64,000 bases of DNA, from NCBI GenBank assembly GCA_914767715.1, contig OU612067.1:22170162-22234161 (forward strand), read 5' to 3'. Below, piece after piece: positions 19,507 through 48,178 of the stretch. Source of the DNA: Membranipora membranacea (Eukaryota > Bryozoa > Gymnolaemata > Cheilostomatida > Membraniporidae). Made by a program: the position numbers and the translations under genes. The notes under the pieces were generated by a model. The model saw nothing but the letters and a program-made list of their open reading frames with translations. It was not told the origin of the DNA and ran no database searches. Numbering within the stretch: position 1 is the stretch's first letter; the number at the start of each line of letters is the position of its first letter.

Positions 19507-22500
19507 TTATGTTGCCTGTGGGTAGCCAAGCTTTCCCATTAGACTCTCCTTAGTATGCTTGGATCTTTGTAGAGAACCTGTACTGCTCAAAACAGGAGGA
19601 AGAACAAGGTTCTTCTGAAGTGTATTTCGTGATTCTGGAGACTGATCATACTGGTCTCCTTCATTCTTCTTCATGTCAATGACAGCATTTGTAACCATAT
19701 CAAGTATGGTTGTCTTCCCATCAGCTTTAGCAAACTGTCTGGCCATGCCTCCCGTAAAAGCTCCTCTGATAGCCATCTTTCCGATCACTGTTGACATCAG
19801 TAGCAGTGTATGAGGCCTCTTAAGTACAACGTGGATCATCTCATTAGGAATAGCTGCCTTTGCATCAACATGGCTTTTGGAAGGTCCAGCTGCTTGTTGA
19901 GGGTTGTAATTTTGGCAGGCCTGAATTATGGCAATCTACAATGTGTAATATTATATTGACTGACTACTAGTATTTTGAAAGTATGATTTAGTGTGCAACC
20001 ATAGTTACAATTTTATTTTGTTTGATAGTTGTAGTGATAGAACATCACGTGATTGTGTATGAGGTCATCATAAGAAGGTGAAGGACAAATATGGAAGGAA
20101 GGCAGTCTATGTGCAGAGCCTGAAGGTGCAACTTGTAACTGGAGATTACCTGAGAAGTACAGCTGAACTAGGATCAAGCCTACTCTTACTAAGGTAATAC
20201 CATTACTCACATAGTACTCTACATGGTGCCAGAAGTCAAAGTCATTCTGGAAATACTTGAATAGATACAGAGGCCAATTACTCTTAGAAAAATTTGGCGG
20301 GAAAATTTTCTTTCATGAGAAAAAGTGACCGTAACTCAGTTTATGATTAGAAGAACATTGATCCCTATCTACAAGGTATAGATTGACTAATAGAGAATGG
20401 CAGAAGGATTGAAAGACGACAAATTCTGTAAGAGAATAGACTTTTCCAGTGGTAATTTATCCGCTGCCTGGAAGACATTCAAGATGCAATTTGACATTTA
20501 TAAGATTGCTAAGAAATATGCTGCTATGTCTGAGCCTGAACAAATATCTAACATGCTGGTGCAAATGGGTAATGAGAGTGTGCCAATTTATGCTCAGTTT
20601 GAATATGATGAGTCAGTAGAGAATAAGAAGGAAACATTAGCAAACACTATCCGTATGTTTGATAACTATTTTGAACCAGTCAAGAACGTTATATACGAAA
20701 GAGCGAAGTTCAACACGATGAAACAAGGCGAGAAAAGCATTCATCAATATATCGTGGAGCTGCAGAACCAAGCAGATCAGTGTGAATATGGTACGGTCAA
20801 AGGCGACTTGGTGAGGGATCGAATTGTAGTAGGAGTGCGTGATAGTAAACTACGTGAATACCTGATCGACTTAGATGATTTGGATCTCCACAAGTGCATA
20901 CAAAAGGCCAAACAATGGGTCAGCAACCATCAGCAGACATCAAAATTCAGTGAAGGGAATGATGAGAACATCGACTATGTTAGTAGCAGACAAGACTACA
21001 AGAAGAAAGCAGAATATTCATCAGCAGCATATCCTTCAGCAGATAGTCCATGTAAATTCTGTCTGAAATCATTTCACAGAGGAAAGAACTGTCCAGCCAA
21101 ACACACAATGTGCAAAGTCTGCAGTGAGAAAGGACACTGGGCGAAGTCAGTAGTGTGTAAAAAGAAGGGTAAATCGATAAGTGAACTCAATTCAAGAATG
21201 ACGGATCACTTGGTCGAGGAAACTGACTGCCTATTTCTAGCAGATGATTTATGACTAGATACAGTTACAGAGACAGATTCAGCATGGTTCTCAGAAATAA
21301 CAGTCAACAATAACAAGAAAATAAATTTTAAAGTAGATTCAGGAGCAGCAGTTACAGCAATACCGGCCGAACTTAATAGGGAGCTGAGGATGAAACTGAC
21401 CCCTACAAACAAGAAGTTGAGGGCAGCTGGGAATCAACTCTTGCAAGTGGCTGGAAAAGCTATAGTGTCCTTGAAGACTAAACACAGTGAAGTGGAGGAA
21501 ACTATATTCTTTGTCAACGGCTTAGTAACTCCTCTCCTAGGAAAGCCTACAATAAAGAAGCTGAATCTCATAAAGTTCATAAACTCAGTCAGTGAGAATA
21601 CTTGGGTGGATAGGTTTCCAAAACTGTTCACGGGACTTGGATCAATGAAAACATCAGTGAATATAACACTAAGAGAGGACGCAATTCCGTTTGCACAGGC
21701 TGTACCTAGAAGAATAGCAGCAGCAAGACGTGGACCTCTAAAGAAGGAACTTGACAGGATGGAGTCATTGGGAGTTATTCAGAAAATAAAAGCTCCAACA
21801 AAATGGTGTGCGCCCTGTATAGTCGTGCCCAAGAAAAATCAAAGTATCCGCGTATGCATTGATTTTACCCGACTTAACCAGGCAGTGTTGAGAGAATACT
21901 ACCCATTACCAACTACAGAAGAGACGCTAAGTGCCCTGGGAAGTGCGAAAATATTTAGTCAACTGGATGCAAACTCAGGTTATTGGCAGCTAAGACTAAG
22001 CGAGCAAGCCCAGAAACTGACAACGTTTATCACACCGTTCGGGAAGTATTTTTGTCGACGATTACCATTTGGAATATCATCTGCTCCAGAAATCTTTCAG
22101 CGTGAAATGCTAAAAGTATTGGAAGGGTTGGAAGGTGTGATCTGTCAGATTGATGACATACTTATCTGTGGTGAAACACAAGAAGAACATGATGCTAGGT
22201 CAGAAGCAGTGATACAGAGATTGAGTACAGCAGGTATTACGTTGAATCCAGATAAGTGTGTATTTAGCAAGCCAGAAGTGAAGTTCTTGGGACACATTAT
22301 CAACAATGAAGGAATTCACGTAGATCCAGAGAAGACTAAAGCAATCACAGAATTCGCTGCACCAAAGAACAGGAAGGAATTACGTAGATTCTTTGGAATT
22401 GTGAATTACATTGGCAAGTTCACAGCAACATTGGCAGAAGACACTTCAGCGTTGAGACAACTGTTACAGAAAGACAGAGAGTGGATATGGAACGCTGAAC

Positions 22501-25500
22501 AACAAAGTCAATTTGAAGAGTTAAAGCGGAAACTGGCCAGAGCTCCAACGCTCACTCCCTACCAGTTGGAAGCAGAGACGTTGCTAAGTACAAACGCTAG
22601 CTCATATGGTCTGGGAGCTGCTATATTGCAAAAAGTGGAAGGCAGTTGGGAACCTGTGGCGTTCGCTTCAAGATCGATGAATCCGGCTGAAACGAGATAC
22701 GCACAAATAGTAAAGGAGGCTCTAGCAATTTGTTGGGGATGTGAGAAGTTTCATTACTATCTAGCAGGAAAAAAATTCAGGATAGAGACAGATCACAAAC
22801 CATTGATATCGGTGTTAGGAGATAAAGAATTGGCTAGGCTACCTATTAGAGTGCAGAGATTTCGATTACGGATGATGGCATATACTTACTCGATATCATA
22901 CACGCCAGGAGAGAAATTAGTATTAGCAGATGCGTTATCCAGAGCTCCATTACCTGGTGGAATGGATTCAGAAAGCACTAACGAGCTGGTAGTAAGCGAA
23001 ATAGCAGATTCCCTGCCCATATCACAGAGAAGAAGAGATAGAATCAAAGCAGCAATACTAGCAGACGAAGAGTCAACTATACTCCTACAGTATATACGTG
23101 AGGGATGGCCAGTGTATGTCAAAGTCAACCCAATGGTGCAGAAGTATTTTACGTTCAAGGACTTTCTCACGGAGATTGATGGAGTTATATACTATTGGGA
23201 TAGAGTGTACATACCTAGAATGGAACAGGATAAAGTGTTAGAGGACATCCACAAAGGTCACCAAGGAGCAACAGAGTTGGTATGGTGGCCAGGGATGACA
23301 GCGGAAATACGAGAGTTGGTGAAAATGTGTACTAGCTGTATTCCATTCAGGAATGTAGCAAGAGAACCGATTGCTCAGACTCCTCTTCCAGATAGGACAT
23401 GGTGGCGTCTGGCAGCGGATGTGTGCGAAAAAGATTCTATCCAATATTTAGTGCTAGTAGATTTTTATAGCAGATATATAGTGGCAAGACGCATTGAAGA
23501 TTGTGAGGCCAAGACCATAATCAGACAGCTAGAAGACGTGTTTTGTATGTTGGGCATCCCTCACTCACTCGTAACTGACAATGCTACATATTTCAAAGGA
23601 GAAATATTCCAGAAGTTTCTTACTAAATGGGATGTAGTTCACATTACTTCAGCCCCGCATAGAGGACAAAGTAATGGCGAAGCTGAACGAGCAGTACAAA
23701 CAGTTAAAGGATTTTTGAACAAAAACATCAATTTACAGGCAGCGCTCTGCAGTTATCGCGACACACCATTAGAAAATGGTTACTCACCAGCAATGCTCAA
23801 TTCTATGGGAATTAACAACTTCAGATCTGTAGATGTGAATCGATTCAAATCCAAAGATACTGCAATCAAGTCACGTCTAGCAACTAATTATAACAAAAGA
23901 TTCGCTGTGAGGGAAAGAAGTCCTTTGAGATTGTTGCAGCAAGTCAGAGTTGTTGACGGTACGAAGAGAAAACCCCAGATAGCTATAGTTGTGGGAACGA
24001 ATGGACGAGAAGTGTTATTAGAGCACAAATCACCAAGGTCCCTGATCCCACAACACTTATAGTATCTGAAAACAGAAGAGAAGGTCAAGAGCTCATACCT
24101 CCACCATCGGCAGTACAGGTAGCAGTCGCGTCCGATAATTTGGCGGGAGCTTATGCTTCCCCACCAGTCACAGAGGCTGTGGCCTCTGAACGATACGAGC
24201 ATCAAAGTCCGGTTGGTACTGTTGCACCAACACCAGTCACTGGTGCTCTTGCACCGGAACAAGTCGCAGGTGCCGTTGCGCCTCTACAGTCAAAAGGTGC
24301 TGTTGCGCCTTTACAACAGGTTTACGGGGCTGTTGCCTCGCCACCAGTTACGGAGGCCGTTGCCTCAAGTTCGTTGGGTGCTAGTGCACCTGAAGTAGGG
24401 CGTAAATGTAAGGTAGCTATTGCCGCCAACCAGTCCAAAGTGGCCATTGCCACTAAACAGTCTAAGGTAGCTTTTGCTGCCAACCAATATGCAGGTGCCA
24501 TTGCACCTATCAAACGTAGTCGCAGTAACAGACCCATCAGAGCTCCCAAACGCTATGATGAAGAATACTAGCTAAGTCTACCTGTTTATGTTCAAATTTT
24601 TTGTTCCTTTTTTCTATCGGTGCACACAATCAATCACGTATTCATTTATATTTACAGATGAACTCTAGGACATTTATTGTATTGGGTAACTCTCTAGTGA
24701 GGCGTCTCACGATACCAGATGTTGAAGTAATATCTATAAATGGTCTCGATTGGGAGGGGGCCAGGAAGTACATGATTGACAATAGACGCTTGTTCATTGA
24801 TAAGCACGTGTATATTCTAGTTGGACCATTGAGGTTTACCTCTCTCCATAGAAGTAGAAGGGAAGTTGCTTTTTGTGGTCACAACTTACACACAGTACAT
24901 CAACTATTTGCACCATTTTATAACGAGCTGTCATTTCTACACATTTCTCCAGTTGTCTGTCCGCTATTCCCCATGAACTTTACGATGTATAATGGACTAA
25001 CAGCTCGACGCCCAATAATGACATCGTTTTATAACGATTGGAATGCTAAGATTAGAGGTCAAGTTGCGACAGAGAATCGCCACATCATGAGATTCAATAC
25101 AAAGTACAATGTGCTTGCACCTTGCCTTAATAATAGGATTTTCCATAGAAAGAAACAGCACTATGCATTCCGGGACCGGTACCTAAGAGACGGACTACAT
25201 GTTACGCAGCAGATATTAGACGAATGGGCTGTGGAATTTCAGCGAGTTATCCTGAAATACACCACGTAACAATAGAGAGAAAAGACAATTTCTTATTAAG
25301 GTTCGTCCACTGTTCGTCCAAATGTAAATATTGTTCTGTTCATTTTTGTTAGTTTTCCCATATACTTATTGTACATACATTGTTAGCATGGACATTTATA
25401 TGACATACAAAGATACTGATGCGTGGTGTGAAGATTGATTGTTCGAGTTTGATGGTGCCGTTGCACCTGTCGGGGATTTACTATATGGTGAAAACTAAAG

Positions 25501-28500
25501 GGGAGATGTAGTGATAGAACATCACGTGATTGTGTATGAGGTCATCATAAGAAGGTGAAGGACAAATACGGAAGGAAGGCAGTCTATGTGCAGAGCCTGA
25601 AGGTGCAACTTGTAACTGGAGATTACCTGAGAAGTACAGCTGAACTAGGATCAAGCCTACTCTTACTAAGGTAATACCATTACTCACATAGTACTCTACA
25701 ATAGTCAACAGATGGTGGTTCTTCGAATGAGAAGTTATCACATCATCAGCACATGCCACATATTAAACCATTTTTTTGATCTCAGCTCGTTTGCTGCCGT
25801 TGAGTATTGAAGAATGAATACATACCATTGGGACTTGTTCAGACAACTTATTATCTAGTATCTGTAGAACATCAGTGATGGGCATATAGGAGCCATTGCA
25901 GCCATACAGCATTCCGGCTTTTCCATGGGTCATGATGGAGATGACAAGAAGGGAGATTCCTTGGGATGGAAGCTCATCGATTCTGTGACGCAGATCTAAT
26001 GCACTTTTCCATTCTATCTTCTGAGTCTTGCATCCTGCTGTGACTAGGCTTTCAGCCATCTTATTAGCTTCATCTTCAGCATCAGGTCTATTCTCGGTGT
26101 TGAAAAGCACAAGGCCGTACCTCTTCATGTGATCTTGATGATATGGTATGATGTACTGGTCACTCTGAACAAATAGTCGATTGATGTTATTAGCGCCTAG
26201 TGGATGCTTCTCTATGAGCTCCTTCAGTATCTGTGACTTGTCACCTGTGTAAAATTAAAATTCAAGTCAAAGAAATATAGACAACCTGCAGCTTTGCATT
26301 CTAGTGTATATATAGCATTTTACAATAGTAGATTTTAATATTTAAATGAGATATATATATGATTGTGACATATAAACTCATATTTAAGACGAGTGGTTGT
26401 CATCATAAGTATGCATTGATTGATGTACCCAAAAAATATCTCTGCTAGCTGTGTAATTTGGATACACATTAGAGTCATGTCAGTTTGTACAGAAGATTAT
26501 AGTTGTAGCACATGACCACTGAAATCAGATATAATGATAATCATAGCACATATATCACTTGAATCAAATTAGCAGACTTTTGTTAGAGGGCCATAGTTTG
26601 CTAGATCAAATTTTGTTCATTTGCTTGATTTTCAAGGTTCTCCCAATTATGGTCACACTGAGATGCTCACACATAATATGTATAATGTAATATATAAATG
26701 TAATACAACAAACTTTTAATGGATAAAAACTGATTAAACATGTATTTAGTTTTATAATTTTTAATTAAAATCAATTCGGAAACTTACTTGATAAGACAAG
26801 CTTTGATATGTAGTCTTGAAGCTCAGTATGACCAGCCTCTGTTATGCTTGAACCTAAAATATTCGCAAAATTTCATTGATGATAAAAATGAGTTTTCCAT
26901 GCACACAAAAAGCAGTGTCTGGGAGGGCTGCTGAAGAGAGGGTTCAAGGTAGGTAAGCAGCCGTAGTGCTTGGAACACAGGGAGATGGTGCTTCAAGTTC
27001 ATTTTATTAAAGCAATTTGCCTTTTCCATGTCAATAAAGATACTTTACACTATGATAATACATATTTTTATGACTTTAACATACATGGTTTCATGAGTGG
27101 TTGTGGAACAAGTCGGTTCTCTTTGTTCTGCACTTCCTTTCTGCAGACAAACTTCTCATATCCAGTATAGCTGGGAGCTAGTTCTCTAGAACTATCTGGA
27201 ACATCCAACTGGTACCAATCAGGATCAACAGCTGTTTGTGGGTCTAGGTTGTTAGTTAGTAGGCAGTGAGAACAGTAGAAGACAGTCTCATAACGAACTC
27301 CTTTCCAGACAGATTTGAGTTCGGTGGTGAGCTTTTTCAGGGTCAAAATCTGCTCTTCTCTTGCTTCACAGATTCTTTTCAGAGGTGTCAGAGTGATGAG
27401 AGTGACACGCTTTTCACCTGCATTGTGAAGGAGGTGTTCGATTATCCCATTACTCTTGGTCACAGTAGCACCATTCCCGCCTGCCTCTGGAAAGTTTGAA
27501 GGATTAGAGTTCATGTCTAGATAGGCGGCAGTGATGAGGGAGAAGATGTAGCTGGGTATGGGTAGACCGCGTAAATGAAGATCGACCTTCAACGGCATCA
27601 GTTGATTGTACACTTCAGGGGCTGTTATTGTTCGGCTGGCAAAATACGGTACAATGTATTTCTGATTGCTTATTGCAGCATTTGAACCGCATAGATGCAC
27701 AAGATGAAATGTTCTTAGGATTTCAATGGACACATCGGCAGGGAGTCGGGATTCTTGCTCTAAGAGGTGTAGAAGCAGAGGTGCATCCATCACTCCTGTG
27801 TCATTGAATGTGTCTATCATCTCTTTGTATCTGCTCTTTTCTATGGTTTTTCCGTCAACAAGAGAGAATGGAATAAATTTATCTAGCCTTTTGTACCAGG
27901 ATTCCTCCAGTGTGTGGTTGTATAGGACTTCTATCACACTTGTTATGACTTTTGAGCGATGGAATATAAAGTTTGATAGCTTGTCTAGTCTCCTGAACCA
28001 CATTATTTGACTTATTTCATGAAGATACTCGAGAGTGACATGTCCTTCATCATCAGGAAATTCTTTCTCTATTTCAGACAGGGTGAGCATGGGCTTGTCA
28101 GAGTGTTGGACTAGCTTCTGTAGTATTCGATACCAGCTACCGGGAATCTCAGTGATTAATCCTGCACCAGCTGCTATGATAGCATTTTTCAGCTTGTCGA
28201 TTTCAGGCTGTCCGGATGTCTTCGAGAAGTGATGGATGTCACAAGACCTTATCAGGACTTCTGAGGTGTTGGCGAAGCTGGTCATGGTAAAGATCGGGTT
28301 AGTGTCATTTTTCAAGTTCTGATTGACATTATTTTCTGCTTGGATTATACCTTGGCGCAATTTCTCAGTGACATTGAGCAGTTGTTGAGTTGTCTGCTCA
28401 ACCTTATCAGGTATACTGTCACAGTGAGTGAGGACTACTACAGGTCTCTTCAGTTGAGGACACGCAATGTAGAGGTGGGATAACCACTCAATACAAAGCT

Positions 28501-31500
28501 CTTGACAAGCAGATTTCTCACCTTTCTCTGAAGCTAATCTATCAAACTCAGCAATGTCTATCACTAGCAGCGGCACACATTTTCTCTTAAAAGTCAGTCT
28601 ATAGGAAAAGTGATGGATCTTCTGGCCTCCGAAGTCAGTAAAGAGTATTTTTGAATTCTCATCAGTCTCCACCTCGCTCATTTCAAAGACTTTAGTGGCA
28701 GCATCCAATTTCCCCTCATCAGAATCGCGTTGTGTCAGCACCCTTTTGTTTGCTTGCACACTGTTAACAAGGCTTGTTTTACCAGCTCTGCTTTTCCCTA
28801 TGACTGTGACAGGTATAAGTCTCTGATTACTGGCTTTCTCAATATGGAGGTCATGAATGTACTTTCTCACAGCTTTTACACCTTGCTTACAGACACCTAG
28901 TGGTGGAGACGTTAGAGAATCACAGTTATCACACTTTACTTTTTCTAATGTTGGGATACTGAACAAGCTCTCGGGGATGGTTGTGAGAGATCTGTTATAC
29001 TCGATATCCAAAGACTCCAGATTAATCAGCTGGCTGATGCTGCAAAAGAACAGAAGATAAAATGTATTGTGTGAGAAGGTAAAAGTGGTCATCTGGTAAT
29101 CATCTCATTCAGAGGGGATAATGCTGGGAAGAGAGGGATGTGGCAAAGTATGCTGAAATGTTGGCCAAGTAGAACCTTCATACAACTTATCAATAGTTAT
29201 GAAGTTGAAATGGACATAAGATCCTTTTAACTAACAAAATGAAAATGCTCCAATTCAATTTCAATGGCAATCGAGAATAATATTGATGAATGCATACGAA
29301 TGTTTATATACGTGTTTCTGTAATATTCATCAAGACTAGACGATATTAGACTTCATTAACTTCAACCTCAAAAACATTTCTGAGATAAACTCATCCTTGA
29401 CTTAATATTATCTTTTTTTTTTCTTTTTTTTAGCTTTTATTGCACTAAAATAATATACTAAGATGGTTATTTAAAAAATATAAATGGTTATAAAAGGCAA
29501 AGGGACAGTCAGATAGCCAGTCAAAGGCTAGCGTGAAGGCTGCCCAGCTCAAGATTTCCTCCCCTACCGCAGGACCCCACCGAAAAGGCGGGGAAGCATG
29601 CCAAACCGGAGCCGGCCTAGGCCGCTGCCCACAGCCGTCCAGCAAGACCTGCCGCGGCAACAGGCAGAGAAGCGGCCTCCCATCCCAATAGGTACCTGTT
29701 GTATAGTTCTATACCACTACACAACAAGGACCTTCCACCTCTATTGTTGTTGGTTTTAATTGGTTTGAGTTTAGTTGATCGCGTATGATAATTGTGAGAT
29801 TTTGAAAATTCATCTAGTTTTTCAGGACTATAAGTTTTTAAAAGCAATTTTAGTATAGAATATTTGAATAGCATATCGATCGGCATAATTTTCAATTTTT
29901 TAAAATATGTTGTGACATGAGAATTTGGTTTAATTTTGAGTATGACCATTAGGCTTGCTTTTTGAATGATTAAAACACGTTTTAAATCTGTTTTGTTTCC
30001 ATGTCCCAAAATCTCTAGACCATATAATAAATGAGGATAAAAGAATGTATAATATATGTCAATAAGAGTTTTTTGGTCTAGGTAAGGCTATGGCACGCAT
30101 CATGAACAAACACAAATTCAGTTTTCTAACAAGTTCAGCTATGTGTTTGGAGAATGAGATATTGCTGTCTAAAGTTATTCAAAGAAATTGTGTATCCGGT
30201 TTAATTTGAAGAGGAATGTTGTTTAAATTGAGGGAAAAATCATTAAAATTAAGTTTTTTGTTTGATGCTCTAAAAATTATCTGAATAGTTTTATCATAAT
30301 TTATAATCAACTTATTTGCAAGACACCAGTTTTTTATGTTAGTAAGTTCAATTTTCATTTTGGATGGCTCTGTGAAGAATATGTTTGTATCATCAGCAAA
30401 TAAAATGTATTTCAAGCTTGGTGATGCCTTCAACAGATCATTGATAAAAATTAAAAATAGCAGAGGGCCTAAGACCGATCCTTGGGGTACACCATTTTTT
30501 AGGGTTAAAAAAGAGGATTTTGCATCATTGATTTGAACAAATTGTTTTCTGTTTGATATATAACACTTCATGAAGTCTTTTGAATTTTCTGTAAAATTGC
30601 AAAGAGTAAGTTTTTGTATTAAAATATCATGGTCAATGGTGTCAAAAGCTTTAGAAAAGTCTAAAAATATACCCTGAGTGATTTTGCTAGAATTAAAATT
30701 TATATATAAATCTTCCATCAACTTATATATGGCACCCGTAGCATTTCTTCCTTTCCTAAAACCGAATTGGCTGTCAGTAAAAATGTGATTTGTTTAAAAA
30801 AATTCATTAATCTGTGCAGCTAAAATCTTCTCCAAAATCTTGGATATGACACTGAGTATTGAAATAGGACGGTAGTTTGAGCAATTTGTTGGATGACCTT
30901 TTTTATGAAGTGGTTTAACACAGGCAACTTTAAGTAGGTCTGAGAAACAAGAGTTTTGAATTGATAGATTTACTAAATAGGCTAGTACTGGAGCAAGGCT
31001 ATATTTGTTGTCTTTTAAAGCTTGGATGGGTATTTTGTCATACCCAGCTGATTTTTAATGGAAAGGCTTTTTAAAATATCAATTATTTCTTGAACCCCAA
31101 TTAGGTGAAAATTTTGGATGTAGGGGATTTGGATGGTCAAAATACTGTCTAAAATCTGTTTTAGAAGCAGGCAGTGCCACTGACTAGTTAGAACCAATAT
31201 TTGTGAATAAGTTATTAAATATTTCTGAAACTGCTTTTGGGTCATCAATTAATTGTTGGTGGTCATCTTTAAGAGCTATACAACTAGTCTCTGTCTTTTT
31301 GCTTTGATTAAGCAGACTTATGATAAAACGCCATTTTTCATTTTGGTTGCCCTTACATTTTGAAAACTGTAATTTAAAATAATTGCGCTTGGCTTCTTTG
31401 ATACATGATGTTACGAAATTGCGGAAATTTATATAATGTTCTTGCACATTTTTGTTAAAAGGCTGATATTTTGCTTTATCATGTAGTTCAGTGCGCTTTT

Positions 31501-37854: not shown

Positions 37855-40800
37855 TTCCAGATAAATTTTGTGTGAGACTGTTATATTGATTATTCGCCAA
37901 ATTCTAACGGGACACCCTCCCTGAATCTAATAGCCATCATATATCACTTACCCCACCTAACATAAAGTGAAGGCAACTCATATTGTACATGTAGTTGAAG
38001 AACAAAGGTATAAATAATATGACTCAGTCAGAAACCAGTCAGTCATATAGCAGCAAACAGATAGTGCAGACTATCATCATAATTCATACTGAGTAATCAT
38101 TATCAGACCTTTGTTCGGACTACAATATATATTTAACCTACCATATTATGGATCCAAAGAAAATAAACAAAAATTAGGACACTACAACAACAAAAATAAA
38201 CCATAAACGCAAAACAAAAAGAAGGCGAGATTGAGAAAGGGACTCCGACTGTTAACTTTATAACCTATATACTCATGAGGACAGATAGATTAATCATATG
38301 AGGGTTATGTTAGTATCGTAGAGTCACCCCAAAGGCTGGAGGCTAGTAGAGAGGACACTCCTCAGACAGCTTTGTCCTGAGAGGATTTTGTTTGAGCAAA
38401 TCAGATATTAGTGATTTGAGGTGAGTCTGTTCTATTTATTGTAACGAGTTTGGTCATCCTAAAACCCCTAGTTTCAGATAAATAACAAGACAGTCAGGGT
38501 TTATGTTGCCTGTGGGTAGCCAAGCTTTCCCATTAGACTCTCCTTAGTATGCTTGGATCTTTGTAGAGAACCTGTAAGGCTCAAAACAGGAGGAAGAACA
38601 AGGTTCTTCTGAAGTGTATTTCGTTCTTCTGGAGACTGATCATGCGGGTCTCCTTCATTCTTCTTCATGTCAATGACAGCATTTGTCCACATTTCATAAA
38701 TTGATGTCTTCCCATCAGCTTTAGCAAACTGTCTGGCTATGGCTCCAGTAAAAGCTCCTCTGACAGCCATCTTTCCGATCACTGTTGACATCAGTAGCAG
38801 TGTATGAGGCCTCTTTAATACAACGTGGTTCATCTCATTAGGATTAGCTGCCTTTGCATCAAAATGGCTTGTGGAAGGTCCAGCTGCTTGTGGAGGGCTG
38901 TAATTTTGGCAGGCCTGAATTATGGCAATCTACAACAATGTGTAATATTATATTGACTGACTACAAGTATTTTTAAAGTATGATTTAGTGTGCAACCATA
39001 GTTACAACTTTATTTTGTTTGATAGTCAACTGATGGTGGTTTTTCGAATGAGAAATTATTACATCATCAGCACATGCCACATATTAAACCATTTTTTTTA
39101 TCTCAGCTCGATTGCTGCCGTTGAGTATTGAAGAATGAATACATACCATTGGGACTCGTTCAGACAATTTATTATCTAGTATCTGTAGAACATCAGTGAT
39201 GGGCATATAAGAGCCATTGCAGCCATACAGCATTCCGGCTTTTCCATGGGTCATGATGGAGATGACAAGAAGGGAGATTCCTTGGGATGGAAGCTCATCA
39301 ATTCTGTGACGCAGGTCTAATGCACTTTTCCATTCTTTCAGCTCAGTCTCGCATCCTGCTGTGACTAGGCTGTCAGCCATCTTATTAGCTTCATCTTCAG
39401 CATCAGGCCTATTCTCGGTGTTGAAAAGCACCAGACCGTATCTCTTCATGTGATCTTGATGATGTGGTATGATGTACTGGTCACTCTGAACAAACAGTTG
39501 ATTGATGTCGTTTGCGTCTAGTGGATGTTTCTCTATGAGCTCCTTCAGTATCTGTGACTTGTCACCTGAGTAAAATTAGAATTCAAGTCAAAGAAATAAA
39601 AACAACCTGCAGCTTTGCATTATGTTGTATATATTGCATTATACTAATGTGACTTGTGAGATTGTCACACATTGAGTGGTATTTTAGCTGGCGTGGCTGA
39701 TTGGCTATCATCATAAATATGAATTGATGTACCCACAAAATATCTCTGCTAGCTGTGCCACTCGGTGACACATTACAGACTAAAATGTGAGTTTATACAG
39801 AAGATTATAGTTGTAGCACATGACTGCGGACATCGGTTAAAATGTTAATCGTAGCACGTATATCACTAGCATCAAATTAGCAGACTTTAAATAAAAAGTC
39901 ATTGGTCATTGGTTCGTTTGCTTGGTTTTCGAGTAGCTCCCTTTGTACGGTCACACTATGATGATCAAAATTTCTCTAGTTTTATAAGTTTGAATCTGAA
40001 ATTCATTTGGAAACTTACTTGATAAGACAAGCGTTGATATGTAGTCTTGTAGTTCAGTATGACCAGCCTCTGTTATGCTTGAACCTAAAATATTCGCAAA
40101 ATTTCATTGATAATAAAAAAAGTTATCCATGCACACTAAAAGCAGTGTCTGGGAGGGCTGCTGAAGATGGGTTCAAAGTAGGTTAGCAGCAACCATAGTG
40201 GCTGCAGCACAGGGATATTGTGCTTAAAGTTCAGCTTACAATAGCATTTGCCTTTTCCATGTCACTAAAAACACTTTACACTATGATAATACAATTATTT
40301 ATGAGTTTTACATACATGGATACATGAGTGGTCGTGGAACAAGTCGGTTCTCTTTTTTCTCCACTTCCTTTCTGCAGACAAACTTCTCATATCCAGTATA
40401 GCTGGGAGCTAGTTCTCTAGAACTATCTGGAACATCCAACAGGTACCAATCAGGATCAACAGCTGTTTGTGGGTCTAGGTTGTTAGTTAGTAGGCAGTGA
40501 GAACAGTAGAAGACAGTCTCATAACGAACTCCTTTCCAGACAGATTTGAGTTCGGTGGTGAGCTTTTTCAGGGTCGAAATCTGCTCTTCTCTTGCTTCAC
40601 AGAGTCTTTTCAGAGGTGTCAGTTTGATGAGAGTGACACGCTTTTCACCTGCATTGTGAAGGAGGTGTTCGATTATCCCATTACTCTTGGTCACAGTAGC
40701 ACCATTCCCACCTGCCTCTGGAAAGTTTGATGGACTAGAATTCATGTCTAGATAGGCGGCAGTGATGAGGGAGAAGATGTAGCTGGGTATGGGTAGACCG

Positions 40801-42450
40801 CGTAAATGAAGATCGACCTTCAACGGCATCAGTTGATTGTACACTTCAGGTGCTGTTATTGTTCGGCTGGCAAAATACGGTACAATGTATTTCTGATTGC
40901 CTATTGCAGCATTTGAACCGCATAGATGCACAAGATGAAATGTTCTTAGGATTTCGATGGACACATTGGCAGGGAGTTGGGATTCTTGCTCTAAGAGGTG
41001 TAGAAGCAGAGGTGCATCCATCACTCCTGTTTCGTTGAATGTGTCTATCATCTCTTTGTATCTGCTCTTTTCTATGGTTTTTCCGTCAACAAGAGAGAAT
41101 GGAATAAATTTATCTAGCCTTTTGTACCAGGATTCCTCCAGTGTGTGGTTGTATAGGACTTCTATCACACTTGTTATGACTTTTGAGCGATGGAATATAA
41201 AGTTTGATAGCTTGTCTAGTCTCCTGAACCACATTATTTGACTTATTTCATGAAGATACTCGAGAGTGACATGACCTTTATCATCAGGAAATTCTTTCTC
41301 TATTTCAGACAGGGTGAGCATGGGCTTGTCAGAGTGTTGGACTAGCTTCTGTAGTATTTGATACCAGCTACCGGGAATCTCAGTGATTAATCCTGCACCA
41401 GCTGCTATGATAGCATTTTTCAGCTTGTTGATTTCAGGCTGTCCGGATGTCTTCGAGAAGTGATGGATGTCACAAGACCTTATCAGGACTTCTGAGGTGT
41501 TGGCGAAGCTGGTCATGGTAAAGATCGGGTTAGTGTCATTTTTCAAGTTCTGATTGACATTATTTTCTGCTTGGATTATACGTTGGCGCAATTTCTCAGT
41601 GACTTTGAGTAGTTGATGAGTCGTCTGTTCAACCTTACCAGGTATACTGTCACAGTGAGTGAGGACTACTACAGGTCTCTTCAGTTGAGGACACGCAATG
41701 TAGAGGTGGGATAACCACTCAATACAAAGCTCTTGACAAGCAGATTCCTCACCTTTTTCTGAAGCTAATCTATCAAACTCAGCAATGTCTATCACTAGCA
41801 GCGGCACACATTTTCTCTTAAAAGTCAGTCTATAGGAAAAGTGATGGATCTTCTGGCCTCCGAAGTCAGTAAAGAGTATTTTTGAATTCTCATCAGTCTC
41901 CACCTCGCTCATTTCAAAGACTTTAGTGGCAGCATCCAATTTCCCCTCATCAGAATCGCGTTGTGTCAGCACCCTTTTGTTTGCTTGCACACTGTTAACA
42001 AGGCTTGTTTTACCAGCTCTGCTTTTCCCTATAACTGTGACAGGTATAAGTCTCTGATTACTGGCTTTCTCAATATGGAGGTCATGAATGTACTTTCTCA
42101 CAGCTTCTACACCTTGCGTACAGACACCTAGTGGTGGAGATGTTAGAGAGTCACAGTTATCACACTGTACTTTTTTTAATGTTGTGATACTGAATAAGCT
42201 CTCGGGGATGGTTGTGAGAGATCTATTAGACGCGATAACCAAAGACCTCAGATTAATCAGCTGGCTGATGCTGCAAAAGAACAGAAGATAAAGTGTATTG
42301 TGTGAGAAGGTAAAAGTGGTCATCTGGTAAGTATCTTCTTCAGAGGGGATAATGCTGGGAAGAGAGGGATTTGGCAAAGTATGCTGAATCGTTGGCCAAG
42401 TAGAACCTTCCTACAACTTCTTTATAGAAATAAAGGTGAATTGGATATAA
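37855..42450 (-). repeat. Segmental duplication, copy B
   Basis: Partner of 18850-29215. It holds the ROCO exon, the caspase exons and the 3' flank, and lacks the LTR element. The last intron is 217 bp (38930-39146) and preserves the unoccupied insertion site. Confidence 0.92.
38435..38440 (-). promoter_or_regulatory. Polyadenylation signal AATAAA, copy B gene
   Basis: Minus-strand AATAAA about 60 nt beyond the stop codon of copy B, at the place matching the one after copy A. Confidence 0.5.
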
Positions 42451-45400
42451 GGTCCTTGAGTAAGACTAACAATGAGACGAAAACTCACTGTCGCGACTTA
42501 AAATAAATCATGGTGGTAATGACTTATTCAAACTTATATTCAAATTTTATCATAAATAAGCTGCATACTTGTAATGTATGAATTACCCACCTTTCTGGTA
42601 ATGTTGATAGATCACAGTATGACACATCTAAGACCTTCAATGACCTCATCATACCAATACTATCAGGTAATGTGTGTAGATTCTTATTACCTGATACATT
42701 TAACTTCTCTAGACCTGTCAGTGAGCCGATACTATAATATATATAAAGATAAGTAAGACTAACAATGAGAAGAAAACTCACTGTCACCATAGGCGTATTT
42801 AATCTGTCTGGTCAACTCTCTAACAAAAATAGCCCCGCGCAGCGGAAAAATTTTTTTCATGAGACAAGCATCTGTTAGAGACTCTAACAAATTTGTTAGA
42901 GTCTCTAACAAATTGTTAGAGTAGAGAATATTGACTTTGTTTCTAGAGCATCTGAGGCCTAAACCACCATCCATTCACAAATCTTTAGCAGTGGGCCTGC
43001 TGGGATTGTGATTGGATCTTTGGCTTGAGGTGGTGGTGGTTTGGACCTCATCTATTCTCAAGAATATCTAACCACCCCAAGCCTCAGATCCACTCAAGGA
43101 TTTTTCAGTGAAGCTTGTGAGTGGATCGGAGGCTTGTGGTGGTGGTTTTGGCCTCAGCTATTTCAGCATGTGATTGGATCTTTGGCTTGAGTTGAGGTGG
43201 TGGTCTGGCTCGGCCACAGCTACGCTTTAGAATGTCTGACTTGACTTGAGGCCCTAAGGCTGCCAACAAGCTTCAGGTTCACTCACAAATCTTTTGCAGA
43301 ATTCAGTCGTGGGTATCTGGGAGATCAGACATAGTACACATTTCAAAAGCCCATTATCAACTCATTGGTTGGGTGGTTGATAAGAATCCGTGACAACTCG
43401 GAAATGCAATTTCAAAAATCAAACCACAAACACCATTTTTGAAATGAACATTTTCGAAGTGTCCGTATACCGGTTGAAAGTAGACTTTTGCAATATGTTG
43501 TGTACTATGTCTGATCCAGCAGGTGCCCATGATGACTGCAGTGGGTCTGACTCTGAGGCTGTGTTGTGACCATGATTGATAGCTATGACTATGATGGCCA
43601 AGTGGTGGTTCTGTGGGGTTCTGTTGACAGTCTCAATCAATCAACACAACAATAAAAATCAATGAATCAACAACAAGCAATCAATCAACCACCAACCATC
43701 ATCATCAATAATGAAATGATGATCATGATGATGATGATGAAAAAAAGACAGGTGTGCTTGCTTTGCTTTGTTGCTAAATATGCATATTGATGAGAGGATT
43801 GGAGGGATGAAAGTTAAGGGACTTTCTGGGTAACATGAGGAAGTTTTTAGGGAGAAAAGATTTGCTCTATCTGCATTTTCCTGTAACTTCGTTGCATCCC
43901 AAAGTATTAATTAAGATGACCTTGGAATGTCAATAGACAACAAAAAGTCTACTGGTTTCATATCAAAATTTTACTTCTATGTCCAGTGACAAAGAGAGGA
44001 CAACTAATAATAATAACAGAAAAAGAAGACAATTCCTCATTACTTGATTCGAGGGTGGAACATTTTTCCCAACACTCTAACCATCCTTGCCTCTAACATT
44101 CGAGAGTTCGAGATAGTTAAATACGCCTATGCTGTCACAACATAAATAAGCTGCATACTTATAATGGATAAATTACCCACCTTTCTGGTAATGCTGATAG
44201 ATCACAGTATGACACATCTAAGACCTTCAATGACCTCATCATACCTATACTATCTGGTAATGTGTGTAGATTCTTATTACCGTACACATTTAACGTCTCT
44301 AGAGCTGTCAGTGAGCCGATACTATAATATATATAAAGATAAGTAAGACTAACAATGAGAAGATAACTCATTGTCACATATTAAAATAAATCATGGTGGT
44401 AATGACTTATTCAAACTTATATTCCAATTTTATCATAAATAAGCTGCATACTTATAATGTATAAATTACCCACCTCTCTGGTAATGCTGATAGATCACAG
44501 TACCGTACAGTTAAACTCTTTAATGACCTCATCATACCTATACTATCAGGTAATGTGTGTATATTCTTATTCTCTGACACATCTAACGTCTCTAGAGCAG
44601 TCAGTGAGCCGATACTATAATATATATAAAGATAAGTAAGACTAACAATGAGACGAAAACTCACTGTCGCAACTTAAAATAAATCATGGTGGTAATGACT
44701 TATTCAAACTTATATTCCAATTTTATCATAAATAAGCTGCATACTTATAATGTATAAATTACCCACCTTTCTGGTAATGCTGATAGATCACAGCCTGACA
44801 CATTTAGGGTCTTCAATGACCTCATCATACCAATACTATCAGGTAATGTGTGTAGATTCTGATTACCGTACACATTTAACGTCTCTAGAGCTGTCAGTGA
44901 GCCGATACTATAATATATATAAAGATAAGTAAGACTTACAATGAGAAGATAACTCATTGTCACATATTAAAATAAATCATGGTGGTAATGACTTATTCAA
45001 ACTTATATTCCAATTTTATCATAAATAAGCTGCATACTTATAATGGATAAATTACCCACCTCTCTGGTAATGCTGATAGATTACAGTTTGACACAACTAA
45101 GACCTTCAATGACCTCATCATACCAATACTATCAGGTAATGTGTGTAGATTCTTATTACCTAACACATCTAACGTCTCTAGAGCAGTCAGTGAGCCGATA
45201 CTATAATATATATAAAGATAAGTAAGACTAACAATGAGAAGATAACTCATTGTCACATATTAAAATAAATCATGGTGGTAATGACTTATTCAAACTTATA
45301 TTCCAATTTTATCATAAATAAGCTGCATACTTATAATGGATAAATTACCCACCTTTCTGGTAATGCTGATAGATCACAGTATGACACATCTAAGACCTTC

Positions 45401-48178
45401 AATGACCTCATCATACCTATACTATCTGGTAATGTGTGTAGATTCTTATTACCGTACACATTTAACGTCTCTAGAGCTGTCAGTGAGCCGATACTATAAT
45501 ATATATAAAGATAAGTAAGACTAACAATGAGAAGATAACTCATTGTCACATATTAAAATAAATCATGGTGGTAATGACTTATTCAAACTTATATTCCAAT
45601 TTTATCATAAATAAGCTGCATACTTATAATGGATAAATTACCCACCTTTCTGGTAATGCTGATAGATCACAGTATGACACATCTAAGACCTTCAATGACC
45701 TCATCATACCTATACTATCTGGTAATGTGTGTAGATTCTTATTACCGTACACATTTAACGTCTCTAGAGCTGTCAGTGAGCCGATACTATAATATATATA
45801 AAGATAAGTAAGACTAACAATGAGAAGATAACTCATTGTCACATATTAAAATAAATCATGGTGGTAATGACTTATTCAAACTTATATTCCAATTTTATCA
45901 TAAATAAGCTGCATACTTATAATGGATAAATTACCCACCTTTCTGGTAATGCTGATAGATCACAGTATGACACAACTAAGACCTTCAATGACCTCATCAT
46001 ACCAATACTATCAGGTAATGTGTGTAGATTCTTATTATCTGACACATTTAACTCCTCTAGAGCAGTCAGTGAGCCGATACTATAATAATAAAGATAAGTA
46101 AGACTAACAATGAGAAGATAACTCACTGTCGCAACTTAAAATAAATCATGGTGGTAATGACTTATTCAAACTTATATTCCAATTTTATCATAAATAAGCT
46201 GCATACTTATAATGTATAAATTACCCACCTTTCTGGTAATGCTGATAGATCACAGTATGACACACCTAAGACCTTCAATGACCTCATCATACATATACCA
46301 TCTGGTAATGTGTGTAGATTCTTATTATCTGACACATTTAACGTCTCTAGAGCAGTCAGTGAGCCGATACTGTAATATATATAAAGATAAGTAAGACTAA
46401 CAATGAGAAGATAACTCACTGTCGCAACTTAAAATAAATCATGGTGGTAATGACTTATTCAAACTTATATTCCAATTTTATCATAAATAAGCTGCATACT
46501 TATAATGGATAAATTACCCACCTTTCTGGTAATGCTGATAGATCACAGCGCCCCACAGTTAAACTCTTCAATGACCTCATCATACCTATACTATCAGGTA
46601 ATGTGTGTAGATTCTTATTACCTGATACATTTAACTTCTCTAGATCTGTCAGTGAGCCGATACTATAATATATAATAAAGATAAGTAAGACTAACAATGA
46701 GAAGATAACTCACTGTCGCAACTTAAAATAAATCATGGTGGTAATGACTTATTCAAACTTATATTCCAATTTTATCATAAATAAGCTGCATACATATAAT
46801 GTATAAATTACCCACCTTTCTGGTAATGCTGACAGATCACAGTATGACACACCTAAGACCTTCAATGACCTCATCATACATATACTATCAGGTAATGTGT
46901 GTAGATTCTTACTATTTGACACATTTAACTTCTCTAGAGCTGTCAGTGAGCAAAGACTGTAATATACAAAAATAAAGGTGAGGGTAACTATTAGAATATA
47001 TCTCATAATCACAATTTATATTAAATTATCCCTTCTTCATTTACGGTGTGTAGAAAAAATGCAAAGCTTAGAGGCCAGAGAGCAGTGCGCATTCTATGAA
47101 ATCAATACACAAAACAAATATCGCACCACGAGTAGTGTGCTCATGTCAGAGCACAGCAGCACTTTGTGAAAACAAAGCGAACGTTGAGTAAGTGTGGTCA
47201 TGTCAGTGAGTGCAGAGTTAATTTTGGAAAATAAGCTTTATAAATATCTACAAGATATTATCTTATAATGGGAATAATCACTTGTCAGTGCCGGGCGAAA
47301 GAAATATAAATATCGATATTCATTTCCCGAATGAAGTATCTGCATTGTGTACATCGAACCAAGGAGTTAAAGACAAGGAGATGCAACAAAGACAGCCTCC
47401 TTGATTTTGATGAACTACCCTAATTTAAACAACTATAAAGCTTTACTTCAGAGGAGAGACAACTACCGACAGTGTGAAATTATGACATAAATATTACTGC
47501 CGGATACATTGTGAGAGATTATCTCAGTATTTGGAGTTTTGTGTTGATAAAACAGCTAGAGGAAAATTGGTCAAGAGTGAGGCGGTGTAATGGCTCAGTG
47601 GCTTCAAGACACAGCTGTCAGATCTGCAACCATGGAGGCTCGCACAAAATGTCAGATTTTAGCCAAAGACTCTTATAAAACTCGAACACTGTATCACACA
47701 ATACTTATGCAAGGCATAATAAGTTTGTCATTGACGGTATCCATACATTTTCCAAATTTCAATTTCCCACCAAGCCCTCCTCTCATCTCCTGTTATCCCA
47801 GCAAGACATTTCCCATCAGGATGTTGCTTGCTATTTCAACAAGACATTTTCCCACTAACCCTTATCGCCTTCAACTCAATGCTGGTAGCCTTTCTAATTT
47901 TATGGTTATGTTTGATGTGAGACTTCCCCACAAACAAAATGCTTACAAAAAAACATACCTCTGTAGCTGATGTTTGTCGGAGATCCTCTCGAGCCTGAGA
48001 GCTGTCAGATGAGGTACCAGCTGATCTAGATTAGGAGGGATATCACCGCGAATAACCATGTGTGAGATCTGACGGTCACAGGTAGCCGCTTCAAGTTCTG
48101 ATAAGGTCATGGATCTGAACTCTTCATCTTTTATGTTATCAATTCCAGGCATTGCCATACCGTACCATACTCTGTAAC
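38501..48178 (-). CDS. LRR-ROC-COR-caspase protein, copy B
   Basis: In-phase minus-strand exons: 47959-48178 (N-terminal, unrecognised fold, [18 protein letters not shown]), eleven 141-bp LRR exons from 46816-46956 to 42591-42731, ROCO exon 40316-42270, 40019-40084, 39147-39565 and 38501-38929 (stop). That gives about 22 LRRs, two more at the start of the ROCO exon, a ROC GTPase (P-loop [19 protein letters not shown]), COR, a short linker and a caspase domain. The caspase has beta-strand [16 protein letters not shown] (His codon 39246-39248), IIQACQN (Cys codon 38909-38911) and a p10-like part ([11 protein letters not shown]…, [14 protein letters not shown]). QACRG is altered to QACQN, and the usual p20 Arg of the S1 pocket is not obvious. 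ROCO proteins are LRR-coupled GTPase switches; a caspase effector is my domain call. Exons upstream of 48178 were not found. Confidence 0.85.
42470..47012 (-). repeat. LRR exon array, copy B: eleven ~293-bp units
   Basis: Exons (all 141 bp): 46816-46956, 46522-46662, 46229-46369, 45939-46079, 45646-45786, 45353-45493, 45060-45200, 44767-44907, 44474-44614, 44181-44321 and 42591-42731. Each begins with the third base of a Ser codon after ttatag and ends AG before gtgggt. Every unit therefore has the same phase at both ends and can be added or skipped without a frameshift. Units at 44159, 45331 and 45624 appear identical in exon and intron. The most divergent is the first (46816-46956). One unit spacing is broken by the element at 42788-44131. 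Confidence 0.93.
42788..44131. mobile_element. Non-autonomous DNA transposon with 15-bp TIRs
   Basis: Ends are CATAGGCGTATTTAA and its exact inverse (44117-44131). It is flanked by a 7-bp direct duplication ctgtcac (42781-42787 and 44132-44138) derived from the LRR-array intron. The interior has repeats of ggatctttggcttgagg and a (atgatg) run near 43720-43740, with no transposase ORF. The superfamily is not clear from a 7-bp duplication. Confidence 0.9.
47361..47690 (+). repeat. Second copy of the 33826-34160 sequence
   Basis: Starts aaggagttaaagacaaggag and matches 33826-34160 at high identity through gacagctgtcagatctgcaaccatgg. It is probably the 5' end of the mobile-element-like gene at 33.8-36.7 kb. 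An open frame ([17 protein letters not shown]…) runs from 47590 but is not recognised. Confidence 0.75.

What the first reader, a model, noticed from the sequence alone, without database searches (positions are those of the whole stretch)
38501..48178. One gene model joining an LRR array, ROC-COR GTPase and a caspase-type peptidase
Every exon from 47959-48178 to the stop at 38501 joins in frame. The order is N-terminal segment, about 24 LRRs, ROC GTPase with P-loop, DFGGQ and THCD, COR, then a caspase-like domain with a His (SIMTHGKAG) and a Cys (IIQACQN). ROCO proteins are known with kinase (LRRK) or death domains (DAPK1). A C-terminal caspase in the same chain is an architecture I do not know. 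It would link recognition, GTPase switching and proteolysis in one molecule, by analogy with NLR-type defence proteins. The family calls rest on motifs and the function is inference.
Basis: partly seen in the sequence, partly recalled or inferred. Interest (0 to 1): 0.92.

Follow-up and report, generated by a model that had tools for sequence, protein, structure and literature searches.

The report
LRR receptor-GTPase fused to a caspase
This animal gene appears to join a pathogen-sensor-like repeat region, a GTPase switch and a cell-death protease in a single protein, and the same genome holds dozens of such genes, which would make sensing and killing one molecule.

Summary
Minus-strand exons 48178-38501 join in one frame into 1545 residues: 11 two-LRR exons of 141 bp, a Roc GTPase, a COR region, and a C-terminal caspase (Pfam C14 48.5 bits, cut-off 21.4, E 1.2e-12). 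The caspase keeps its His-Cys pair and the residues predicted to bind Asp substrates.

It is not a one-off. 67 of 68 scored Roc-COR exons in this genome have a caspase exon 459-3072 bp downstream on the same strand; none was found upstream or on the opposite strand within 5 kb. Exon order, splice phases and a short linker exon recur in paralogs. Asp-Ala sits in an otherwise variable p20/p10 loop in 16 of 17 sequences, a likely self-cleavage site. LRR differences cluster on ligand-facing positions.

Best reading: an expanded family of single-chain ROCO-caspase receptors, most likely immune or cell-death. The listings I saw held no published report of this chain.

The parts
47959..48178 (-). N-terminal exon (may be the first; first in-frame ATG at 48158-48156)
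   Evidence: in frame with all later exons, donor GTATGT; only one match in the window at E <= 1e-3
46816..46956 (-). LRR exon 1 (141 bp, two LRRs, phase 1)
46522..46662 (-). LRR exon 2
46229..46369 (-). LRR exon 3
45939..46079 (-). LRR exon 4
45646..45786 (-). LRR exon 5
45353..45493 (-). LRR exon 6
45060..45200 (-). LRR exon 7
44767..44907 (-). LRR exon 8
44474..44614 (-). LRR exon 9
44181..44321 (-). LRR exon 10
42591..42731 (-). LRR exon 11
40316..42270 (-). large exon: last LRRs, Roc GTPase, COR; ends in PLMYP before a phase-1 donor
   Evidence: Roc 28.1 bits over cut-off 27; C. tepidum Roco 3dpu E 2.2e-10, profile E 8.9e-15
42003..42029 (-). P-loop GKSRAGKTS
   Evidence: GxxxAGKT in 21 of 21 aligned sequences, the window and 20 relatives
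40019..40084 (-). 66-bp linker exon ([21 protein letters not shown])
   Evidence: in frame; related exon in 16 of 21 paralog loci at 10 bits or more
39147..39565 (-). caspase exon 1: p20 part with S1 Arg and catalytic His
   Evidence: Pfam C14 alone 23.5 bits
39246..39248 (-). catalytic His codon (THG)
   Evidence: invariant in the 10 sequences
39408..39410 (-). Arg aligned with the caspase S1-pocket Arg of p20
   Evidence: invariant in 10; aligned with an Arg of insect caspase-1
38501..38929 (-). caspase exon 2: catalytic Cys, intersubunit loop, p10 part, stop
   Evidence: Pfam C14 alone 22.2 bits
38909..38911 (-). catalytic Cys codon (QAC)
   Evidence: invariant in 10
38855..38860 (-). Asp-Ala of the p20/p10 loop, proposed self-cleavage site
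   Evidence: Asp-Ala present in 16 of 17 loops of 16-76 residues
38759..38761 (-). Arg aligned with the caspase S1-pocket Arg of p10
   Evidence: invariant in 10; aligned with the Arg of SYR in caspase-8
19507..29039 (-). tandem paralog (copy B): Roc-COR exon 29039-27085, linker 26853-26788, caspase exons 26244-25826 and 19935-19507; LRR matches at 33652-33512 and 33360-33220
   Evidence: 95% identity in Roc-COR; same splice sites

Best explanation
The gene encodes a single-chain ROCO-caspase: an LRR sensor, a Roc-COR GTPase and dimerisation switch, and a C-terminal caspase. It belongs to a large family in this animal. Most likely mechanism: the LRR face binds a microbial, self or danger ligand; Roc-COR changes its GTP and dimer state; this brings two C-terminal caspase domains together; they cut themselves at the conserved Asp-Ala in the p20/p10 loop and then cut targets after Asp, giving cell death or an inflammation-like response without a separate adaptor. 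Shown here by sequence: the joined frame, the domain matches, the linkage across paralogs, constraint on the caspase, and intact motifs. Inferred: one mRNA, GTP-driven dimerisation (from other ROCO proteins), Asp specificity, self-cleavage, ligand binding and an immune role.
For: One frame over 16 exons. Pfam C14 E 1.2e-12, and Roc over cut-off on the exon. A profile of 8 caspase regions finds 21 PDB sequences at E <= 0.001, all caspases, best caspase-8 at 2.6e-8 over p20 and p10. 67 of 68 scored Roc-COR exons (of 393 candidates) have a downstream same-strand caspase exon, median 742 bp; controls within 5 kb: 0 upstream on the same strand, 0 on the opposite strand (hits). In 8 of 8 loci extracted, caspase exon 1 ends at IPL/VPM before a GT donor and exon 2 opens after an AG at (I/V)xx(I/V)QACQ, both phase 0. 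A related linker exon lies between Roc-COR and both caspase types, 16 of 21 loci at 10 bits or more. In L029 LRRs and Roc-COR lie in one open frame of 2442 codons, followed by both caspase exons. Dyad and S1 positions invariant in 10 sequences. Asp-Ala in 16 of 17 loops. dN/dS 0.17-0.59 in the 7 of 45 pairs with dS below 1. Canonical caspases beside Roc-COR in other clades: C14 at 98-105 bits in 2 of 2 joined examples, CED-3 E 3.2e-12 for one. LRR amino-acid differences: 234 of 351 in 10 of 47 codons, reached by 1 of 100000 random sets.
Against: No RNA, no protein and no structure: structure prediction was busy at all 14 tries. The window's COR match is below Pfam's cut-off, and its Roc match is below it in the full chain. 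No full-length relative with a caspase among 7997 candidates scored. One of 68 Roc exons, C3:26116824 (L036), has no caspase exon in the 3.5 kb read nor among scored hits within 10 kb, although it has a weak linker match. Of 20 top caspase loci 7 have no Roc exon in the 10 kb fetched, and 48 of 143 compact-type caspase hits are not near a scored Roc exon. Copies A and B differ at more nonsynonymous than synonymous sites in caspase exon 2 (22.5 against 4.5, ratio 1.55). Synonymous differences among the LRR exons (pS 0.12) also exceed intron differences (0.026), so amino-acid selection alone does not explain the LRR pattern. 38 of 45 caspase pairs are saturated at synonymous sites (dS above 1). 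All copies come from one genome or from unnamed metagenome contigs, some perhaps of the same species.
Confidence: 0.68

Rival explanations
1. Two neighbouring genes, a ROCO gene and a caspase gene, that were always duplicated together and are transcribed apart, or joined only in some splice forms.
For: No RNA was available. The caspase exons could in principle have a promoter of their own. 48 of 143 compact-type caspase exon hits are not near a scored Roc exon, so the caspase may also exist alone, although the Roc search scored only 68 of 393 candidates.
Against: In the window the Roc exon has no stop before a phase-1 donor; 20 of 21 aligned exons carry the P-C end at this place (alignment; the pattern catches 19, and P0019 lacks it). 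The linker and caspase exons begin at acceptors in matching phase, and caspase exon 1 does not begin with Met. A related linker exon occurs beside both caspase types.
Confidence: 0.1
2. The compact caspase of the window's clade is a dead or regulatory pseudo-protease that only binds or scaffolds.
For: It scores lower (48.5-53.2 bits) than two canonical caspases of other clades (98-105 bits). Copies A and B differ in exon 2 at more nonsynonymous than synonymous sites.
Against: His, Cys, Gln and both S1 Arg positions are invariant in 10 of 10. Ratios below 1 in all 7 unsaturated pairs. An Asp-Ala cleavage-like site is kept in 16 of 17 variable loops.
Confidence: 0.14
3. The family works in development, tissue turnover or self/non-self (graft) recognition rather than in defence against microbes.
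For: No expression data. ROCO proteins in other animals have non-immune roles (recalled). Sponges and other colonial animals show allorecognition (passage seen in PMC8195603).
Against: High copy number, tandem clusters and variable LRR faces resemble immune receptors, but they would also fit allorecognition.
Confidence: 0.2
4. The copies are mostly decaying duplicates and the frame is an accident of recent duplication.
For: Copy B carries an LTR element in an intron and a reverse-transcriptase fragment upstream, and its N-terminal exon was not found in the window. Two of 68 Roc hits have an internal stop, and in L024 the Roc match is split over two frames.
Against: 66 of 68 Roc-COR hits have no internal stop. 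dN/dS is below 1 in the 7 unsaturated pairs. The arrangement is kept at 47-60% Roc identity.
Confidence: 0.04

Closest known systems
ROCO proteins with immune adaptor domains (Trichoplax, PMC4104024 Fig. 1 legend; Aplysia, PMC9334734 passages)
   Same: Roc-COR core joined to signalling domains linked to immunity: the Trichoplax legend lists CARD, TIR and LRRs among domains drawn; the Aplysia paper describes TIR proteins and a MyD88-like protein with ROC-COR
   Different: Those carry adaptor domains; here the C-terminal domain is the protease itself
Brown algal LRR-ROC-COR genes with shuffled LRR exons (PMC11378527, passages)
   Same: LRRs on exons of equal size and phase upstream of Roc-COR, proposed immune receptors
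   Different: [quoted passage not shown] here 141-bp exons with two LRRs, and a caspase
DAPK1, LRRK1/2, MASL1 (human ROCO proteins; PMC6337361 passages, and recalled)
   Same: Roc-COR GTPase module; DAPK1 acts in cell death (recalled)
   Different: Kinase or death domain in place of a caspase
Initiator caspases and CED-3 (biology recalled)
   Same: p20/p10 match by sequence, His-Cys pair, Arg-Gln-Arg pocket, Asp in the subunit linker
   Different: They are recruited by CARD or DED to a separate receptor complex; here the receptor is in the same chain
Sponge NLRs (Dysidea avara, PMC12909245)
   Same: Expanded LRR receptor genes; the Fig. 2 legend lists CASc and COR among domains drawn
   Different: Built on NACHT; the text I read does not describe an LRR-ROC-COR-caspase chain

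Membership tests
ROCO (Roc-COR) proteins | Roc GTPase domain with G1, G3, G4 motifs | tested here: met
   Pfam Roc 28.1 bits over cut-off 27 on the exon (26.6, just below, in the full chain); GxxxAGKT, DxxG(Q/H/N/D) and T(H/Q)xD each in 21 of 21 aligned sequences
ROCO (Roc-COR) proteins | COR domain directly after Roc | tested here: inconclusive
   COR-A 13.1 bits, below cut-off 35.3, in the window; 19 of 21 aligned sequences match COR-A and 2 of 21 COR-B at E <= 0.1; C. tepidum Roc-COR aligned over Roc, with a weak second segment over COR (4.9 bits); no fold model
ROCO (Roc-COR) proteins | GTP-dependent dimer cycle | not testable with these tools
   needs biochemistry
Caspase (C14, metazoan type) | Significant match over p20 and p10 | tested here: met
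   48.5 bits, cut-off 21.4; 8 of 8 members scanned; 8 of the 10 sequences; caspase-8, E 2.6e-8
Caspase (C14, metazoan type) | Catalytic His and Cys | tested here: met
   HG and QAC invariant in 10 of 10
Caspase (C14, metazoan type) | Arg-Gln-Arg S1 pocket for Asp (residue roles recalled) | tested here: met
   positions invariant in 10 and aligned with Arg, Gln and Arg of caspases; by sequence only
Caspase (C14, metazoan type) | Closer to caspases than to metacaspases | tested here: met
   21 of 21 PDB matches at E <= 0.001 are caspases
Caspase (C14, metazoan type) | Cleavage after Asp | not testable with these tools
   Asp-Ala in 16 of 17 loops is suggestive only
NLR (NACHT/NB-ARC-LRR) | NACHT or NB-ARC STAND ATPase | tested here: not met
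   no NACHT or NB-ARC match listed for the window protein at E <= 10, though HMMER filters drop most matches above 0.1; the GTPase is Roc. One of 21 aligned sequences has a weak NACHT match, E 0.023

The most novel reading that the evidence does not exclude
A self-contained 'one-protein inflammasome' repertoire: dozens of receptors in one animal, each carrying its own sensor, GTPase switch and self-activating caspase, with LRR cassettes diversified by recombination between near-identical introns, giving an invertebrate a large, changeable set of recognition-triggered proteases without adaptors.
Probability: 0.35. Interest if true: 0.93.

Novelty: new variant of a known kind. Interest (0 to 1): 0.84.

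Why it matters
In the animal cell-death pathways I know of (recalled), the sensor and the caspase are separate proteins joined by CARD, DED or death-domain contacts. Here they appear to be one chain, with a Roc-COR GTPase between them. That would give a direct way to test how ROCO proteins, the class that includes the Parkinson's kinase LRRK2, pass a GTP signal to an effector: a protease readout in place of a kinase. It would also add a large receptor family to early animal immunity beside NLRs, with an exon layout that could generate diversity quickly.

Tried and rejected
Chance or pseudogene join: rejected after the tandem copy and the genome-wide linkage. Relatives in other collections: none confirmed in GTDB genome contigs, IMG/VR or phage records. 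Full-length relatives: the 1545-residue query returned one protein among 7997 scored, with Roc and COR but no C14 listed. Metagenome linkage: P0007 with P0039, and P0010 with P0044, show the same source and longest-contig length, which suggests one contig each; I could not see the contigs. P0007's last 30 residues equal L031's Roc end, so the first pair is probably from the same or a near species and was not counted as independent. The Roc alignment A1 holds 20 of the 36 hits; five near ones (P0013, P0015, P0020-P0022) and the distant P0026-P0036 were left out. A regex first picked up an LRR exon of copy B (33650-33510) in the model; it was removed. A first LRR test used 8 codons that left out two invariant positions of the motif; it was replaced by a fixed set of 10 xxLxLxx codons. 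A census of ROCO-caspases is incomplete: the Roc search scored 68 of 393 candidates, the compact caspase search 130 of 533, Pfam C14 140 of 515. Of 20 top caspase loci fetched, 12 had a Roc-COR exon covering nearly the whole profile on the same strand (in L024 split over two frames), L025 only a fragment, and 7 none. Papers: searches showed nothing on a ROCO-caspase chain in the rows listed (25 of 327, 25 of 48, 15 of 47; all hits); only open-licence PMC papers are held. PMC8195603, PMC11378527, PMC4104024, PMC6337361, PMC7159879 and PMC9334734 were seen as passages, PMC12909245 as passages and part 1 of section 16, and the three 18-chromosome sponge notes as listing abstracts.

Full report
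What is there. The window is C3:22170162-22234161 of an unnamed 339-Mb genome in 18 contigs. On the minus strand, 16 exons from 48178 to 38501 join in one frame into 1545 codons and a stop. Every join has AG and GT borders. The order is an N-terminal exon, 11 exons of 141 bp with two LRRs each, a 1955-bp exon with the last LRRs, Roc and COR, a 66-bp linker exon, and two caspase exons of 419 and 429 bp. Pfam gives Peptidase_C14 at 48.5 bits (cut-off 21.4, E 1.2e-12) over residues 1312-1513, and each caspase exon passes alone (23.5 and 22.2 bits). Roc passes narrowly on the exon alone (28.1 against 27) and falls just short in the full chain (26.6). COR-A does not pass here (13.1 against 35.3), but 19 of 21 aligned sequences, the window among them at E 0.091, match it at E <= 0.1. 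The closest solved Roc-COR is the C. tepidum Roco protein (E 2.2e-10; profile E 8.9e-15).

The caspase. A profile of eight related caspase regions finds 21 PDB sequences at E <= 0.001, all caspases, best caspase-8 at 2.6e-8 over both subunits. The catalytic His and Cys, the Gln before the Cys, and two Arg positions that align with the Asp-binding pocket are invariant in ten sequences; the pocket roles are recalled from caspase structures. Between Cys and p10 lies a loop of 16 to 76 residues with little other conservation, yet Asp-Ala is kept in 16 of 17 loops, the exception being the shortest loop. I read this as a self-cleavage site. Purifying selection can be judged only where dS is measurable: 7 of 45 pairs have dS below 1, with ratios of 0.17 to 0.59; the other 38 are saturated. 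The closest pair, copies A and B of the window, is the least clear: Roc-COR 0.59, caspase 0.585, with exon 2 alone at 1.55.

Not a one-off. A second copy lies in tandem, with its Roc-COR exon at 29039-27085 and the same linker and caspase exons, 95% identical in Roc-COR. Genome searches gave 68 Roc-COR exon matches (68 of 393 candidates scored), 143 matches of the window's caspase exons (130 of 533 scored) and 145 of Pfam C14 (140 of 515 scored). By coordinates, using both caspase lists, 67 of 68 Roc-COR exons have a caspase exon downstream on the same strand at 459-3072 bp, median 742. None has one upstream on the same strand or on the opposite strand within 5 kb. The exception is C3:26116824; the 3.5 kb read beyond it (L036) holds no caspase exon. 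In a direct reading of eight sampled loci, seven carry both caspase exons. In eight loci, those seven plus L029, the splice sites and phases match. In L029 the LRR array and Roc-COR lie in one open frame of 2442 codons, followed by the linker and both caspase exons.

Two caspase types, one arrangement. Twenty 10-kb loci around the best Pfam C14 hits were fetched. Twelve have a Roc-COR exon upstream on the same strand that covers nearly the whole profile (in L024 split over two frames), L025 has a fragment of it, and seven have none. The Roc-linked caspases that I looked at are canonical and spread over several exons. Two joined approximately by eye score 98-105 bits to C14, and one of them matches CED-3 at 3.2e-12. 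His and Cys motifs are seen by pattern in 12 of these 13 loci (not found in L023). In a Roc-COR tree the compact caspase type of the window falls in one clade (support 0.99, 14 tips, of which only three, the two window copies and L029, have their caspase read in full here), nested among genes with the canonical type. The tree has one outgroup and unnamed tips. A short linker exon of the form G-x-x-x-(T/S)-(E/D)-x-G-x-x-x-L-x-x-Y lies between Roc-COR and caspase in both types: with a permissive profile scan 16 of 21 loci score 10 bits or more (L011, L027 and L029 among them had been used to build the profile), L036, L023 and L014 score 4-9 bits, the L012 hit lies elsewhere, and L017 has none. 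L012 has a matching stretch by eye. This fits one ancient join, with the compact caspase derived later. That is an inference.

The LRR part. Nine introns between the first ten LRR exons are on average 97.4% identical, while the eleven LRR exons are 91.1% identical. Amino-acid differences pile up at the ligand-facing xxLxLxx positions: 234 of 351 in 10 of 47 codons, reached by 1 of 100000 random sets. This suggests diversifying selection on the binding face, with unequal crossing over in near-identical introns. Against a simple reading, synonymous differences (pS 0.12) also exceed the intron level (0.026), and over all codons pN (0.077) is below pS, so exchange of exon pieces between arrays may be part of it.

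How it most likely works. Step one, LRR binding of a ligand, is inferred from LRR biology and the clustered variability. Step two, a GTP-linked change of dimer state in Roc-COR, is inferred from known ROCO proteins. Step three, caspase dimerisation and self-cleavage at Asp-Ala, is inferred from the intact motifs and the conserved site. Step four, cell death or a pyroptosis-like response, is inferred from caspase biology. Shown by sequence only: the joined frame, domains, linkage, conserved splice layout and constraint. Defence, allorecognition and tissue turnover are not separated by these data.

What is known. In print are ROCO proteins of Trichoplax drawn with domains that include CARD and TIR (PMC4104024 legend), Aplysia TIR proteins and a MyD88-like protein with ROC-COR (PMC9334734 passages), and shuffled LRR exons upstream of ROC-COR in brown algae (PMC11378527 passages). 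A sponge NLR paper lists CASc and COR among domains drawn in its NLR figure (PMC12909245), but the text I read does not describe this chain. Searches showed no ROCO-caspase report in the rows listed; they cover open-licence PMC papers only, and searches listed only part of their hits. A protein search found no full-length relative with a caspase among 7997 scored candidates.

Limits. No RNA, no fold model (14 attempts met a busy machine), an incomplete census, one genome, and unnamed sources. I take the organism to be an animal from its metazoan-type caspases. A demosponge is my guess, resting only on the 18 contigs, a count reported for three demosponges (listing abstracts).

Noticed in passing
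window 25700-20030: LTR element in the intron between the caspase exons of copy B; its two 194-bp LTRs differ at 1 of 194 bases, with matching ACTAT flanks, so the insertion is recent and leaves the splice sites intact.
   Followed up: partly
G000 C3:21727721-21734490: Another paralog has its two caspase exons about 5.9 kb apart like copy B, which suggests that the element-bearing copy was itself duplicated.
   Followed up: no
window 30182-30793: Reverse transcriptase of a non-LTR-like element (Pfam RVT_1, 104.5 bits) lies between the LRR matches and the Roc exon of copy B, whose N-terminal exon was not found in the window.
   Followed up: no
L029 1-7327: A paralog with an LRR array of dozens of similar 23-residue repeats and Roc-COR in a single open frame of 2442 codons without introns.
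   Followed up: partly
G000, 48 of 143 hits (e.g. clusters at C9:9.51-9.56 Mb, C11:0.15-0.21 Mb, C8:14.5-15.0 Mb): Compact-type caspase exons not near a scored Roc exon; two of them are the exon 2 of copy B and of its C3:21.73 Mb twin, which lie more than 5 kb away. The rest may be stand-alone caspases or lie beside Roc exons that were not scored.
   Followed up: no
L036 (G000 C3:26113400-26116900): The one scored Roc-COR exon without a caspase exon nearby, though with a weak linker match; it may have lost the caspase or use another C-terminal domain.
   Followed up: partly
L009, L010, L013, L015, L016, L021, L028: Strong caspase loci of the same genome without a Roc-COR exon in the 10 kb fetched; they may be ordinary caspases.
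   Followed up: no
window LRR exons 46956-42591: Synonymous differences among LRR exons (pS 0.12) are about five times the intron differences (0.026), which amino-acid selection alone does not explain.
   Followed up: no
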